Positions 45,887 to 51,690 of a stretch of DNA of 64,000 bases are shown one piece after another. Under the pieces are notes generated by a model. It did no database searches and was not told the DNA's origin. It was given only the letters and a program-made list of their open reading frames with translations. Source of the DNA: an uncultured Oscillibacter sp. (GTDB taxonomy: Bacteria; Bacillota; Clostridia; Oscillospirales; Oscillospiraceae). The position numbers and the translations under genes were made by a program. How positions within the stretch are numbered: position 1 is the stretch's first letter; the number at the start of each line of letters is the position of its first letter. Where the stretch lies: NCBI RefSeq assembly GCF_947654275.1, contig NZ_CANTJS010000001.1, forward strand, positions 1 to 64,000, given 5' to 3'.

Positions 45887-48800
45887 TCAGGGAACCAGAG
45901 CGAAGGCGGAGAAGTTCACAGGAGCAGCGGGCATGTCGAAGGTGATGGTCAGAACGGCCTTCTTGGCAGCCACAGCGTCGTCGTTGCCGGTCTTGGTGTA
46001 GACACCAGTAGCGGGGATCGCCGTACCAGCAGTAGCGGTCCAAGGAGTATCAGTTCCATCGCTATCGGAGTAATAGGTACCACCATTGTTAATGGCTGTA
46101 GCCTCATCCGCAGTGGGTTGGAAGTTAGCGGTATCCGCAACCTGTGCCCGGAGGGTGGCCGCAACGTCGTCATAGGTAAAGGTCTCAGCCACAGCAGTCA
46201 CACCCTGGGTGGTCAGCTTGACAACTGCGCCATCAGGCAAACCAGTATTGGTGTAGTCGGTGGTCAAAGTCAGGGTAGCGCCGTCAGTAAGAGCCTTGAA
46301 AGGAGCTTCCTGACCAGCATCCTGAGTGAAGGTAATGGACACAGGAGTACCTGCCACATAGCTGTCAGCCGCGGTTCCGCCCACAGTCCAGTTGGACATG
46401 GCCGCATCGATGGTCAGAGCATAGGTCTTCGCCTCCACATCGGAGAAGGAAACCTCGATGGCATAGCCTTCCACAACGTTCGCGAGGGTGAGGGCGTTAT
46501 CGCCGTCGGACAGGGTCTGGGCGTTCACCAGGACGGTGTTGCCCTGCTTCACGGTGACCTTAGCGCTGTCATACTTACCAGCTTCCATGGTCACGGTCAG
46601 GGTCCTGGTGGAGCCAACACCGATGGAGGTAGAGCCAGCCTTGATGGAAAGGCCCTCGGGAACAGTGCCGGTGGTGGCGGCCTTCACCTTATCCCAGGTG
46701 ATGGTGGGAGTACCAACGCCGAGCACGGTGCCTTCACGGTAGGTATTGGCGCCCAGCGCGGACACCTTGCCGCCGGTGGTGGTAGTCCTGGCGGTATCGG
46801 CCTGCACGCCGTCAACAAGGATGCCGACGGAGACAGTGGCGGTGGCATCGTCAGCGGCCCAAGCGGGCTTGGTCACCTCGAACTCAACAACGGGTCTGCC
46901 GCTGCTGCCCAGCTTGACGGTGGCGGTCACGCCGCCGCCGCTGGAAGAACCGCCCTCAGAGCCGTCCTTGCGGGTCGCTTCCTGAACGATGATCATGGCG
47001 ACATCGCGGAAGCCGTCGGACTCGACGTTATCGTTGACAACCATGGCCAGCTTGACGTCCTTGAAGTCCTTCAGGTCCTTGGTGGAAGCGATGTGGTTGG
47101 TGGTCAGGTCGACCCACTGGGTCTTGCCGCTGACGCGGACGCGGTCCACAAACTCGCCGGTCTGCTTGTCGTCACCACTGTTATACACGATGGTGCCAAC
47201 AGCAGGCTTCTTGCTGGGATCGGTCCTGTCGACATTGCTGCCGTCGGGAGCCTTGTAGGAATCGCTCTCCAGAACAATGATGTTGTCATTGCTCTTCAGG
47301 ATGTTGGAAACCTTGGCCACGAAGGTGGTGGTGGTCTTGTCGAAGTGGTTGGTGTGCTCGCGCAGCTTGTAGAAGTCGGAAACCTGATCGTTCTGGACCT
47401 CGCTGTAGCTGGCGAAATCGCCAACGCTCAGATTCTCATAGGAGTAGATGGTCTTTGCCTCGCCGGCCAGACCGTCGGCAGTGTTCATCACCACGGTGTA
47501 ACCGTAGATGATCTTGCCGGTGCTGTCGCTCTTCTGAGCGGAGCCCAGATAGTCGCGGATGTACAGCAGATTGCTGGAGATGGCGGTGTTGCTCTCGCGC
47601 TTGATGACAACGGCCTTGACAGAGGCGTTGTTCTTGTTGTCCGCGCCGCTGTTCTCGCCGCCGACATAGGCCTGAGCGGTATCCCACGCGCCGATGTTAG
47701 CGTCATTGGTGAACTGGCCGTTAGCGGCGGTACCGCCTTTATAGGCCTTCAGCTCGGTGTTGGAAACAGCCTGAACACCCTTGCGGATTTCAACGCTCTC
47801 AACCTCGTTGTCGTCGTTGAACTCAACATAGATGAACTTGATGCCGCTGGCAACGTCAATGGGGTTGGCCAGGCTGATCTTGGAGTTCGTTTTATAATGA
47901 CCGCTTACGTCAGTCAGGGCAATACGGGTATTGTAAGCGGTGATCTGATAGGTATTGCTGGAAGCGCCGTGGTCAACAGCATAGATCTTGGCGTCGTTGC
48001 CGGGCTCGGAACCGTCCTTCAGGAGCCAGTCGGCAGAGCCGCTGGTGGCGTTCTCATAACGGACCAGGTCGCCGGGCTTGGCGTGGTCCTCAGCGTCACC
48101 AGCGCCAACCTGAGGATCGCGGCCCAGGTTCAGGTCAACCTCGTTGCCGTTCATATCCCAGCCGTGGACGAACTTGACCAGACGGCCGTCGATCAGGGAA
48201 TCATAGTAGTAACCAACCACCATGTACTCCTCGGTCTTGCCCACGTCCTCGGCCAGCAGGGCATTGCCGTACTTGTCCAGGGTCAGGGTGACGTCCTTCT
48301 TGGTGACCTTGACGGCCTCGCCGTCGATCTCAATGATGTCCTTGTTCCACTCAGCGGCCTTGTAGGAGGTACCGCCGACGGTCAGGCCGATGGTGCCGCG
48401 GTTGCTGGCGCTGGAACCGTAGGTGTCGACGCGGGTCAGAGCGCCGGTCACGGTCTCGGGAACATAAGCTTCCCAAATGTCGAAGCGGGCGTTGCCGTGA
48501 TCCTCAGCCACGGGAACGACGACAACCTTGTCGCCGGCCTTCAGGCCGGAAAGCACGCTGTAGCCGCGGTCCTCAACCTGAATGTCGTTGTAGGTCTTGG
48601 AGCCGGCCAGGCCCTTGTCATTGGCCACGTCGAAGGCCTCGCGGTTGTAGCCTTCCTTGGGGGCGTGGGTGTCGGCGCCGTCGGTGTCATACTTGCCCAG
48701 GGTGACATAGTCAGAGCCAATGCGCTTGACTTCCACCAGAGCGGACTGGATAACCACAACGTCGGTGATCAGGTCGGCATCGGTCTCGGAGACATAGACC

Positions 48801-49873
48801 TCCACCACGGTGCCGTTGTCGGTGAAGTCGGCAATCTCAGAAACCTTGGCCATAGTGTGGGAGCTGGCATAGCCGTTCAGCCAGAGCTGAGTGCTGCCAT
48901 TCACCTCATAGCCGTTCAGACCCAGAGCGCGGACCTTGCTGGCGTCGGTGCTGGAGTTGTCGTTGTGAGCGACCAGCTCGGTGTAGCGGAAGTCGGGCTC
49001 CAGGGCATAGGTGCCGATGGTGACCTTCTTGTAGCTCCACTCAGCGGAGGGCTGGCCCAGGTCGTTGTCGGTGGGGTTCTTCTTGTCGTGCTCCAGACGC
49101 AGGTCAACGAAGTGCTCCTCACCGAACTCAACGGTGTAGTACTCGCTGCTGTTGGCGGCGGTCTTGGCGTTGATGTTGGTGGCGAAGTCCTGGTTGCTGG
49201 TCTTGTAGCTGCGGTTGGGGTTCACAACCACGGTCTGATCGCCATTGGTGACGTTCATGCCGCCGCTGTACTCAACCAGAGTGGCCTTCAGGGTGTTCAG
49301 AGCCAGCTGGCAGGCCTGCTCGCGGTTGACGGTCTCGTTGCCCTTGAAGCTCAGGCGGTCGAACAGGCCGGCCTCGTTGCCCAGGGCGGCAACCTTCATG
49401 TTCCAGCCGGCGCCGGTGAAGCCCTCAAGCTCGCCCTTGTAGCCCAGAGCGCCCAGCAGCATCTTGCTGAAAGCATAGCCGCTCAGGCTTCCGTCGGGCT
49501 TGAAGGAGCCGTCCTGATAACCGTTGATGATCTTGCTGGTCTTGCAGTAGCTGATCACGCCCGCGAAGGTGTGATTCACAGGAACATCGGTATACGGAGC
49601 GGTCGTTGCCACCAGGTTAGAGGCGGCGTCGGTGCCGATCAGCAGGGACACGATGATCTTGGCGGCAGCGCCGCGGGTCAGCTCCTTCTTGGGCTGGAAG
49701 CTGCCGTCGCTGTAGCCGGTGATGATGCCGAGACGGTTCAGAACCGCAACGGCTTCCTCGTACTGAATCTCATCCTTGTCGGTGAGATCCTTGTACTCGG
49801 TGGCGCCGGCGCTGATGGTGACCAGGGACATGGTCATAACCAGTGCCAGCACCAGGGACAGGAATTTCTTCAT
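45887..49873 (-). CDS. Probable major S-layer protein with N-terminal SLH domains
   Basis: This 1328-residue protein has a signal peptide (residues 1-24, KKFLSLVLALVMTMSLVTISAGA). Two clear SLH domains (about 30-75, SDGSFQPKKELTRGAA; about 94-145, QDGSFKPDGSLSGYA) and a weaker third (about 150-200) follow. The rest is a long acidic, Thr/Val/Asp-rich beta region with no cysteine except one in the third SLH region. Codon use and length fit a highly expressed S-layer subunit. AAGGAGG precedes ATG 49873. A long leader starts from promoter 50019-50047. The large SLH protein at 16409-20242 anchors at the other end, by C-terminal domains. Confidence 0.85.
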   Translation of the reverse strand: MKKFLSLVLALVMTMSLVTISAGATEYKDLTDKDEIQYEEAVAVLNRLGIITGYSDGSFQPKKELTRGAAAKIIVSLLIGTDAASNLVATTAPYTDVPVNHTFAGVISYCKTSKIINGYQDGSFKPDGSLSGYAFSKMLLGALGYKGELEGFTGAGWNMKVAALGNEAGLFDRLSFKGNETVNREQACQLALNTLKATLVEYSGGMNVTNGDQTVVVNPNRSYKTSNQDFATNINAKTAANSSEYYTVEFGEEHFVDLRLEHDKKNPTDNDLGQPSAEWSYKKVTIGTYALEPDFRYTELVAHNDNSSTDASKVRALGLNGYEVNGSTQLWLNGYASSHTMAKVSEIADFTDNGTVVEVYVSETDADLITDVVVIQSALVEVKRIGSDYVTLGKYDTDGADTHAPKEGYNREAFDVANDKGLAGSKTYNDIQVEDRGYSVLSGLKAGDKVVVVPVAEDHGNARFDIWEAYVPETVTGALTRVDTYGSSASNRGTIGLTVGGTSYKAAEWNKDIIEIDGEAVKVTKKDVTLTLDKYGNALLAEDVGKTEEYMVVGYYYDSLIDGRLVKFVHGWDMNGNEVDLNLGRDPQVGAGDAEDHAKPGDLVRYENATSGSADWLLKDGSEPGNDAKIYAVDHGASSNTYQITAYNTRIALTDVSGHYKTNSKISLANPIDVASGIKFIYVEFNDDNEVESVEIRKGVQAVSNTELKAYKGGTAANGQFTNDANIGAWDTAQAYVGGENSGADNKNNASVKAVVIKRESNTAISSNLLYIRDYLGSAQKSDSTGKIIYGYTVVMNTADGLAGEAKTIYSYENLSVGDFASYSEVQNDQVSDFYKLREHTNHFDKTTTTFVAKVSNILKSNDNIIVLESDSYKAPDGSNVDRTDPSKKPAVGTIVYNSGDDKQTGEFVDRVRVSGKTQWVDLTTNHIASTKDLKDFKDVKLAMVVNDNVESDGFRDVAMIIVQEATRKDGSEGGSSSGGGVTATVKLGSSGRPVVEFEVTKPAWAADDATATVSVGILVDGVQADTARTTTTGGKVSALGANTYREGTVLGVGTPTITWDKVKAATTGTVPEGLSIKAGSTSIGVGSTRTLTVTMEAGKYDSAKVTVKQGNTVLVNAQTLSDGDNALTLANVVEGYAIEVSFSDVEAKTYALTIDAAMSNWTVGGTAADSYVAGTPVSITFTQDAGQEAPFKALTDGATLTLTTDYTNTGLPDGAVVKLTTQGVTAVAETFTYDDVAATLRAQVADTANFQPTADEATAINNGGTYYSDSDGTDTPWTATAGTAIPATGVYTKTGNDDAVAAKKAVLTITFDMPAAPVNFSAFALVP

Positions 49874-50018
49874 GTAGACATTCCTCCTTCTAAAATTACG
49901 AAGCGGTCAAATGTTCCGTGCCGCAGTCCCCCTTCCAGGGTTCGTGTCGGGGCTAGCCGATCCCACATCAATCCTGGAACAGGCTTCCTTGGCCGGGCCA
50001 TCCGCCCTTCGCAAGCCT

Positions 50019-50047
50019 AATGTAACAGCCCCGAATCCGTTTGTCTA
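50019..50047 (-). promoter_or_regulatory. Promoter and 140-nt leader of the S-layer gene
   Basis: On the minus strand, -35 TAGACA (50047-50042), 17-bp spacer, -10 TACATT (50024-50019). The leader (about 50012-49874) has inverted segments such as TTCCAGG/CCTGGAA, and long leaders are known to stabilise S-layer mRNAs. The rest of the gap to 50226 shows only a GC-rich hairpin near 50174-50210. Confidence 0.55.
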
Positions 50048-50226
50048 TGAATTCGCCGGACTTGTAATTTGTTTGATAAACGGCCTGTTTTTATTGCCGT
50101 TATGGGTTAAACAGCGGTAACAAAGTTCCGATTTTGCCGGGCCAAACCGCGGCGCTCCGCCGCAGCCGGAGGGCGGCCCCTCCGCCGCCGGGGCGGGTCC
50201 GGAGGGGCCGTCTGCCGCCAGCCTGC

Positions 50227-51501
50227 TCAGGCCTCGCCGGCGCTCTTATTCAATAAGTAGCGCTGCCGCTCCTGGCAAATCCGCCCCGACGCCAGCAGCT
50301 TTTGCAGCACCGGGCGGCACTGTCCCGGCTCAATGCCCAGCAGCCTCGCGATGTCCTGCCGGTAGGCGAAGCCCTCCCGCTCCAGATAGTCCAGAATGGC
50401 CTCCGCCTGCTTCTCCGGCGGCACCACGGCCTCGGGAAGGTAGTAGCGGTTCCCCACCTGGGTGAGCCTGCCCCGCTTCACCATCTGCCTGAGGCGGTTG
50501 TAAGCAGTGGTCCGGGAGACCTCCAGCAGCGCGCACACGTCGTTCCGGGTGACGGCGCGGCGCTTCCGGACCAGCTCCAGAATCCGGCCCTCTCCGCCGG
50601 AGCGGAGGCCGCAGTCCATGCGCAGATCCCGGAGGGTCACGTCGTCCAGCCCCGCCCGGATCAGCGCCGCCCGAACCAGCTTGGACAGCCGGGTCCGGTC
50701 ATAGGGCTGGCGGCTCCTGGGGGAGGTCAGCACCCATTCCGTATCCGGCTCCAACTCCCGCAGCGCCTCCAGCGCCCCCAGAACGCCGCCGGTCAGGGGG
50801 ACCCTCCGGTCCTCCAGACGCAGCAGCCCCCGGTCCAGCTCCGCCTGCTCCCACCGCAGAGCCACAATCTCCTCCAGCTGCAGGCCCGCCTGCCAGGTCA
50901 GCCACAGGGCCACGCCGGCCGGGCTGGTTCCCTCCGCCCGCAGCAGCTTCCACAGGGCAAACTCGTCAATCCGGGCCGGCGCTTCCCGGCGAATCCGGGT
51001 GGACACCCGCTTTTCCTCCAGATGCCGGCCAAAGTGGACATTCAGGCCCGCCGCTTCCACGCCGGTAATCCGGGAGACATACTGCCAGTCGTGGGTCTCC
51101 AGCTGCCGCAGGACGAAGTCGTTCCGCAGATCAATGAGCCGGACGGCGGTCTGCCCCTCCCGGTCCAGGGCGGTCCGGGCCAGCCGGGAAATGGACTGGG
51201 GCGTCAGGGGCTTCCGGTCCCGATCGGACAGCACCACGTGCTCCTGCCGCCGGTCCCGGCTGTCCCGCAGCCTCTGAAGCCACTCCGCCAGCTCATCGGA
51301 AATGGGGACGCTCCGGTCCGCCAGAACAATTTTCCGGTCCAGAAAATCCACCCGCTCCCAGGTCAGCCCCTGGATTTCCTCCCGCAGCAGTCCCGCCTGC
51401 CACGCCAGACGCAGAATGGCCCCGGCGGCGTCCTCCGCATGGGCCGCAAGGATGCGGTTCATGGCCCCTTCGTCAGGGCGGTTCACGACATAATCCTGCA
51501 T
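50227..51501 (-). CDS. Degenerate tandem tyrosine-recombinase-like protein with two winged helices
   Basis: This 424-residue protein contains two segments with the fold pattern of tyrosine-recombinase catalytic domains: about 15-160 (WQAGLLREEIQGLTWERVDF; LIDLRNDFVLRQLE) and about 175-310 (WQAGLQLEEIVALRWEQ; TLRDLRMDCGL). In both, the first catalytic Arg of GLR is replaced (Leu, Gln). The HxLRH motif is IDLRN and RDLRM. The nucleophile Tyr aligns with Phe in HFGRH of the first copy and is lacking in the second. Two winged-helix segments follow (about 312-362, TRNDVCALLEVSRTTAYNRL; about 368-420). Strand exchange is not expected; DNA binding is. ATG 51501 has GGGAGGAG upstream. Confidence 0.7.
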   Translation of the reverse strand: MQDYVVNRPDEGAMNRILAAHAEDAAGAILRLAWQAGLLREEIQGLTWERVDFLDRKIVLADRSVPISDELAEWLQRLRDSRDRRQEHVVLSDRDRKPLTPQSISRLARTALDREGQTAVRLIDLRNDFVLRQLETHDWQYVSRITGVEAAGLNVHFGRHLEEKRVSTRIRREAPARIDEFALWKLLRAEGTSPAGVALWLTWQAGLQLEEIVALRWEQAELDRGLLRLEDRRVPLTGGVLGALEALRELEPDTEWVLTSPRSRQPYDRTRLSKLVRAALIRAGLDDVTLRDLRMDCGLRSGGEGRILELVRKRRAVTRNDVCALLEVSRTTAYNRLRQMVKRGRLTQVGNRYYLPEAVVPPEKQAEAILDYLEREGFAYRQDIARLLGIEPGQCRPVLQKLLASGRICQERQRYLLNKSAGEA

Positions 51502-51643
51502 GGCTCCTCCCTTTTTGTTACAGTTGTATAGCAAATTTTCTGCCTTCCCCATAAAGCAAAAAACGCCTTGTTTTCCTCGTAACCGCGGAAAACAGGCAAG
51601 TTTCAGCACAGGCTGTTTGTTACACTTATGGGCTTCAGACATC

Positions 51644-51690
51644 GAATCTGCCAGATTCCTTGAATCCACTGCGGCGCAACGGATTCAAGG
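51644..51690. promoter_or_regulatory. Palindrome cluster between divergent regulators
   Basis: GAATCT-N3-AGATTC (51644-51658) touches CCTTGAATCC-N13-GGATTCAAGG (51658-51690, perfect 10-bp arms). Together they carry four GAATC/GATTC half-sites at regular orientation. A further palindrome TGTTTTCC/GGAAAACA lies at about 51572-51597. No gene is seen in the 309-bp gap. These are candidate operators for the flanking regulators, though the second hairpin, followed by TTTTT, could also act as a terminator or attenuator. Confidence 0.5.

What the first reader, a model, noticed from the sequence alone, without database searches (positions are those of the whole stretch)
50227..51501. Catalytically dead double tyrosine recombinase fused to two winged helices: a possible recombinase-derived regulator
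Two recombinase-like domains sit in tandem, and the first Arg, both His-type positions and the nucleophile are all replaced, while LR of HxLR stays. The second copy runs straight into two winged helices. It starts without the usual core-binding domain. The protein looks like a former recombinase changed into a DNA-binding factor. It lies upstream of the S-layer gene on the same strand and faces an XRE gene across palindromes. I know of no described family of this layout.
Basis: partly seen in the sequence, partly recalled or inferred. Interest (0 to 1): 0.75.

Follow-up and report, generated by a model that had tools for sequence, protein, structure and literature searches.

The report
Dead-recombinase protein paired with S-layer gene
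A gut bacterium's former DNA-cutting enzyme has lost its cutting parts, gained DNA-binding domains and is kept beside genes for the cell's protein coat, most likely as the switch that controls them.

Summary
Window 50227-51501(-) encodes two tandem tyrosine-recombinase folds without a working active site, then two winged helices, under purifying selection. It belongs to a multi-paralog family that I found only in Oscillospiraceae. Its S-layer link is strong: in 56 of 62 testable homologs an SLH surface-layer gene starts within 700 nt downstream, against 1 of 476 control ORFs. A motif, [G/A]TAAC, stands before the regulator's start in 61 of 63 members of four paralog groups and far upstream of the SLH gene in 42 of 42; it is weaker elsewhere. 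Best reading: a recombinase-derived, self-regulating DNA-binding protein controlling its linked S-layer gene. Binding and direction of control are not shown. The principle has a precedent (MrpR, phage SPbeta repressor); layout, chromosomal setting and S-layer pairing differ. Unexpectedly, five homologous loci carry an apparently intact tyrosine recombinase and a 14-24 bp inverted repeat around about 230 bp upstream, like an invertible promoter, so some pairs may be phase-variable. The window holds no such recombinase.

The parts
50227..51501 (-). target gene: 424-aa protein with two catalytically dead tyrosine-recombinase domains and two winged helices
51022..51474 (-). recombinase-like domain 1 (aa 10-160); Arg I->Leu39, His->Ile123, Arg126 kept, box III His->Val148, Tyr->Phe157
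50599..50970 (-). recombinase-like domain 2 (aa 178-301), ends before the nucleophile segment
50437..50592 (-). winged helix 1 (about aa 304-355)
50248..50418 (-). winged helix 2 (about aa 362-418)
45887..49873 (-). SLH-domain surface-layer gene (1328 aa), the conserved downstream partner
51517..51521 (-). GTAAC site about 20 nt before the target start codon, just after an extended -10-like TGCTATACA
51619..51623 (-). second GTAAC site, about 102 bp further upstream, same orientation
50117..50121 (+). GTAAC site about 245 nt before the SLH start codon, opposite orientation
50019..50047 (-). promoter-like TAGACA-17-TACATT before the SLH gene
   Evidence: 1 found, 0.4 expected in shuffles; consensus match only
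49874..50013 (-). SLH mRNA leader with a covarying hairpin that shows GCTAGC in its loop

Best explanation
The protein is a transcription regulator derived from a tyrosine recombinase. It should no longer cut DNA but still bind it, through its two recombinase folds and its two winged helices. It binds [G/A]TAAC-type sites at its own promoter, where the site falls at the expected transcription start (so self-repression is likely), and a site about 245 nt before the start codon of the S-layer gene next to it, about 105 bp upstream of the predicted transcription start there (so activation is the likelier direction). It thereby sets expression of its partner S-layer gene. Shown: the layout, the loss of active-site residues, purifying selection, the gene pairing, the shared motif. 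Inferred: DNA binding, that this protein is the binder, repression or activation, and any signal.
For: Active site lost across the family. Maintained by selection: dN/dS 0.18-0.45 against nine group-A relatives (simple counting method). SLH gene starting within 700 nt downstream on the same strand in 56 of 62 full-length unique homologs with at least 700 nt of downstream sequence (median gap over the 61 pairs measured 307 nt), against 1 of 476 other long ORFs in the same loci, some of which may not be genes. The pair is duplicated in the own genome (regulators 49%; SLH proteins 54%). [G/A]TAAC before the start codon, coding strand: groups A 26/27, B 28/28, C 3/3, D 4/5 (opposite strand 1, 0, 0, 1; shuffle means 2.6, 1.7, 0.3, 0.5). 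More than 150 nt before the SLH start, opposite strand: 16/16, 19/19, 3/3, 4/4 (other strand 4, 1, 3, 0; shuffle means 3.0, 3.5, 0.4, 0.9). In group D, 2 of the 3 members with both sites share CAAGTGTAACC at both places. XRE is absent beside groups B-E (0 of 41), so it is not the common binder. Two upstream sites 90 or 99-104 bp apart in 13 group-A loci, about one helical turn between the two classes, the two 90s being sister loci. Recombinase folds and winged helices are both DNA-binding folds (general knowledge). MrpR shows that the route is possible (PMC10516654).
Against: No binding or expression data. The motif and the two search intervals were chosen after looking at the sequences, and loci within a group are related, so counts overstate independence. 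The near-start motif adjoins a -10-like element, so part of its conservation may be promoter sequence. Group B shares only the short core between its two places; group C has the far motif on both strands. Groups E (3/5) and unassigned (4/20, same as the opposite strand) mostly or partly lack the near-start site. Six of 62 homologs have no SLH gene downstream (L034, L045, L053, L058, L059; L054 has one upstream). Other [G/A]TAAC sites also lie in the window's two gaps (seven in all). Inter-domain placement in the model is uncertain (pTM 0.44). The window-v-paralog dN/dS is 0.75, a divergent pair.
Confidence: 0.7

Rival explanations
1. It is an accessory or architectural factor for site-specific recombination at S-layer loci: it binds DNA and steers an intact recombinase rather than RNA polymerase.
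For: Five homologous loci carry an apparently intact tyrosine recombinase 300-710 bp upstream and an inverted repeat between recombinase and target.
Against: Only 5 of 88 homologs show such a recombinase within the stretches held, by a motif filter; the window shows none by a similar filter. The SLH pairing and the motif are conserved without it.
Confidence: 0.12
2. It still recombines DNA with an unusual active site, for example using the Tyr kept in some members.
For: Arg II is kept in 86/88 and Tyr in 10/88.
Against: Arg I is Arg in 1/88, the HxxR His in 0/88, Tyr is Phe in 73/88 and in the window; the Lys hairpin is shortened and domain 2 has no recognisable nucleophile.
Confidence: 0.02
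3. It regulates the S-layer gene after transcription, binding the mRNA leader hairpin with its winged-helix pair, as SelB binds SECIS.
For: GCTAGC lies in the last 160 nt before 57 of 61 linked SLH genes, in a covarying hairpin (14 sequences); Foldseek lists SelB winged-helix/SECIS complexes, E about 2e-3.
Against: Four of 39 genus genomes without a detected homolog carry the strict leader pattern, and others carry extra copies on contigs where no homolog was found. Tandem winged helices are common. It would not explain the [G/A]TAAC sites.
Confidence: 0.06
4. It is a decaying remnant without function that travels with the S-layer gene.
For: The catalytic residues are gone; at least one copy is interrupted by a stop (L051).
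Against: dN/dS 0.18-0.45; 88 full-length unique homologs spanning the winged helices; multiple paralogs kept.
Confidence: 0.02

Closest known systems
MrpR (YopR), master repressor of Bacillus subtilis prophage SPbeta, PDB 8A0A/8BJ6 (PMC10516654)
   Different: MrpR has a core-binding domain and one catalytic-fold domain, keeps Tyr and Lys, and is phage-encoded. The window protein has no core-binding domain, two such domains, two winged helices and a chromosomal S-layer partner. The profile search of PDB sequences did not list MrpR at E 0.01.
SroF of phage phi3T, PDB 9RD5/9RGL
   Different: Known to me only from the PDB titles (no paper with the name found); not compared further.
Archaeal XerA and bacterial XerD recombinases
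   Same: Fold of domains 1 and 2.
   Different: They are active enzymes with the full catalytic set and a core-binding domain (general knowledge).
Invertible promoter switches of Clostridioides difficile (CwpV, cmrRST; papers seen only as search listings; mechanism recalled)
   Same: Surface or morphology genes behind a short invertible element with inverted repeats; compare the five homologous loci found here.
   Different: In those five loci what follows the element is a recombinase-derived regulator (in group C after a small ORF), itself followed by the S-layer gene. No such recombinase is in the window.

Membership tests
Tyrosine recombinase superfamily (fold) | Catalytic-domain fold, Pfam PF00589 | tested here: met
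   (56.7 bits, cut-off 27.1)
Active tyrosine recombinase | Arg I, Lys, His-x-x-Arg, His/Trp, Tyr | tested here: not met
   of these only Arg II is kept in the window protein
Active tyrosine recombinase | N-terminal core-binding domain | tested here: not met
   distant homologs L010/L011 and L012 carry N-terminal extensions that look like one (inspection only)
MrpR-type recombinase-derived repressor | Recombinase fold with catalysis lost | tested here: met
   fold; residues; loss of activity itself not assayed
MrpR-type recombinase-derived repressor | Core-binding plus single catalytic-fold domain | tested here: not met
MrpR-type recombinase-derived repressor | Phage-borne | tested here: not met
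   no match in 50,697 phage records; none by the pattern scan of viral contigs (one short peptide pattern); neighbours thiI and cinA recur in relatives
MrpR-type recombinase-derived repressor | Binds repeated operators and represses | not testable with these tools
   only the conserved motif is seen
Winged-helix transcription regulator | wHTH domain over Pfam cut-off | tested here: met
   HTH_20 27.3 (cut-off 27), HTH_24 26.8 (21.9), IclR 24.9 (22), FeoC 23.0 (21), DeoR 22.7 (21); just over, no single family
Invertible-promoter switch (five homologous loci only) | Intact recombinase, inverted repeat, promoter inside | tested here: inconclusive
   recombinase motifs and repeats found; the promoter-like sequence rests on a criterion relaxed after viewing, which also hits 33 and 27 of 249 control windows per strand
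Invertible-promoter switch (five homologous loci only) | Both orientations occur | not tested
   no reads at hand; the main promoter-like sequence faces away from the target in all five assemblies

The most novel reading that the evidence does not exclude
These gut bacteria run a set of S-layer cassettes, each with its own recombinase-derived regulator that reads sites at itself and at its coat gene. In some cassettes a living tyrosine recombinase flips the promoter that drives the dead one, so a catalytic recombinase writes the state and its dead cousin passes it on to the S-layer, giving phase-variable coats.
Probability: 0.35. Interest if true: 0.85.

Novelty: new variant of a known kind. 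Interest (0 to 1): 0.68.

Why it matters
If true, bacteria as well as phages have turned tyrosine recombinases into regulators, here as a chromosomal, multi-copy family tied to surface-layer genes of gut Oscillibacter/Dysosmobacter. It would give a handle on how these bacteria choose their protein coat, and the five switch-bearing loci would make S-layer phase variation in them directly testable by counting reads in either orientation. It also warns that some proteins that match the integrase family are not recombinases.

Tried and rejected
XRE as the common motif binder: rejected, as it is absent beside groups B-E (0 of 41). Phage origin of the present family: no hits in phages or viral contigs, though the viral scan used one short peptide pattern. 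Origin from the neighbouring intact recombinases: no significant BLAST match to five family members tried (best E 0.27). Spread beyond the family: of 394 genomes drawn from the order 4 matched at 1e-8, all in the window's family, one (G117) a weak partial hit; the listing does not say how many of the 394 lie outside the family. More single-domain relatives like G132's: 8 of 400 family genomes matched, seven of them through genomes that already held or resemble the two-domain form; G754 was not looked into. Leader as a known RNA: no Rfam match near a gathering score. Leader as regulator-specific: weakened. Promoter scan of the five elements with a strict consensus gave mixed results; the extended -10 form was chosen after looking at them; L109 also has a match facing the target. 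An RNA alignment with wrong coordinates (A4) was dropped. A second structure job (winged-helix pair alone) had not finished at the last look and is not used. A metaproteome paper (PMC6170429, passages) spoke of Lactobacillus S-layer protein in the passages seen, so it did not help. Literature searches for this layout, pairing or precedent: in an open-access library only. Apart from PMC10516654 and PMC6170429 I saw listings only (one search showed 20 of 101); the one paper listed was not opened. MrpR was the only precedent found.

Rows dropped before counts: 117 matches, 96 unique proteins, 88 full-length; 8 fragments or interrupted copies left out; 26 of the 88 have under 700 nt downstream and are not in the 62; one group-A locus with a 99-nt gap is not in the 16. 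The window's own locus stands in these counts through its 99% relative L031. Groups A-E were cut from a FastTree tree by eye; 20 members stay unassigned. The five switch loci are partly related (three in one clade), so the Fisher value overstates independence.

Full report

The active site is gone. Aligned to 4a8e, the box I Arg is Leu39, the Lys-bearing hairpin is shortened, the HxxR His is Ile123, Arg126 stays, the box III His is Val148, the Tyr is Phe157. Over 88 unique full-length homologs: Arg I 1/88, His 0/88, Arg II 86/88, box III His 1/88, Tyr 10/88. In domain 2: Arg I 16/88, His 0/88, Arg II 61/88. The second nucleophile segment is missing or overwritten: the XerD alignment ends before it, and a weak XerA profile match lays it over the start of winged helix 1 without His or Tyr.

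It is a real, selected family. The named collection gives 22 loci, titled Oscillibacter, Dysosmobacter, Oscillospiraceae or Clostridia, 63-99% identical. With the paralog as query, 47 of 86 genomes of the genus carry homologs at E<=1e-20, up to five in one genome (G723, one of its copies interrupted). In 300 genomes drawn from the family, 10 have strong (E<=1e-30) matches, the own genome included; of 394 drawn from the order, 4 matched at 1e-8, all in the window's family. dN/dS against nine group-A relatives is 0.18-0.45.

The constant partner is an S-layer gene. In 56 of 62 full-length unique homologs with at least 700 nt of downstream sequence, an SLH gene starts within 700 nt on the same strand. 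The same test on other long ORFs of these loci gives 1 of 476. The genome has 55 SLH-domain matches, so such genes are common, but not that common. The own genome has a second pair 42 kb away: a 49% identical regulator followed by a 54% identical SLH gene. Misses: L034 (arginine-deiminase-type genes follow), L045, L053, L058, L059, and L054 (SLH upstream). A relative in G132 with an N-terminal extension and only one recombinase-like domain also has an SLH gene downstream, hinting that the link is older than the duplication.

A shared DNA motif. Before the regulator's start codon, on the coding strand, [G/A]TAAC occurs in 26/27 (A), 28/28 (B), 3/3 (C), 4/5 (D), 3/5 (E) and 4/20 (unassigned), against shuffle means of 2.6, 1.7, 0.3, 0.5, 0.5, 1.3 and opposite-strand counts of 1, 0, 0, 1, 0, 4. 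More than 150 nt before the SLH start, on the opposite strand, it occurs in 16/16, 19/19, 3/3, 4/4, 4/5 and 11/13 against shuffle means of 3.0, 3.5, 0.4, 0.9, 0.9, 3.5 and other-strand counts of 4, 1, 3, 0, 0, 7. Motif and intervals were chosen after looking, and group members are related. Flanks differ by group: GTAACA in A and GTAACC in D at both places; B has mainly ATAAC near the start and mixed forms before the SLH gene. In the window I count three sites as fitting: 51517-51521(-), 51619-51623(-) and 50117-50121(+); four other [G/A]TAAC lie in the same gaps. The near-start site follows an extended -10-like TGNYATRCA, so it would lie near the transcription start. The SLH gene has a promoter-like TAGACA-17-TACATT at 50047-50019(-), which puts the third site about 105 bp upstream of the start it predicts. 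Where two coding-strand GTAACA sites exist in group A (13 loci) they lie 90 or 99-104 bp apart. The divergent XRE gene occurs in 21/27 of group A and 0/41 of B-E, so the regulator is the better candidate binder.

Mechanism. I infer a multivalent DNA-binding regulator: recombinase folds plus winged helices give up to four contacts, the site at its own start suggests self-repression, the far upstream site suggests activation of the SLH gene. None of this binding is shown.

An unexpected switch in homologs. In L102, L104, L109, L112 and L151 a recombinase with the complete signature residues by eye lies 300-710 bp upstream. All five have an inverted repeat of 14-24 bp around 227-237 bp between it and the target; among the other 83 homologs three repeats of 14-15 bp with other spacings (317, 202, 565) occur (Fisher 1.4e-6, not corrected for relatedness). 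Each element holds an extended -10 promoter-like sequence facing away from the target, as an OFF state would. That criterion was relaxed after viewing the elements, and 33 and 27 of 249 control windows also hit, so the promoter point is suggestive only. The two loci outside group C (L104, L109) lack the near-start [G/A]TAAC site. The window shows no intact recombinase by the motif filter.

Noticed in passing
window 49874-50013 (-) and the same place before linked SLH genes in other loci: The SLH mRNA leader folds strongly (z -3.7) and carries a hairpin with palindromic GCTAGC in the loop; 9 of 13 consensus pairs show compensatory changes in 14 sequences. GCTAGC lies in the last 160 nt before 57 of 61 linked SLH genes. 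No useful Rfam match. The strict pattern is found in 28 of 47 genus genomes with a detected regulator and 4 of 39 without.
   Followed up: partly
L102, L104, L109, L112, L151 upstream of the target: Apparently intact tyrosine recombinase plus inverted repeat around 227-237 bp, a likely invertible promoter. L102 has a second such recombinase beyond the SLH gene.
   Followed up: partly
L112, L102, L151 and own paralog locus L064 9768-10112 (-): A small ORF of about 110 aa, apparently related between groups B and C by eye, stands before the regulator gene.
   Followed up: no
L053 (G210:C39) 79-2667: Downstream of one homolog lie an integrase-like ORF and a Cas9-like ORF instead of an SLH gene (by eye).
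   Followed up: no
window 51660-51688: Palindrome TTGAATCC...GGATTCAA between the target and XRE genes; similar palindromes with changed arms in many group-A relatives, by eye.
   Followed up: no
L037, L038, L039, L042, L047: In five of the 22 named loci the contig ends within 270 nt after the target gene, as if near-identical SLH gene starts broke the assembly.
   Followed up: no
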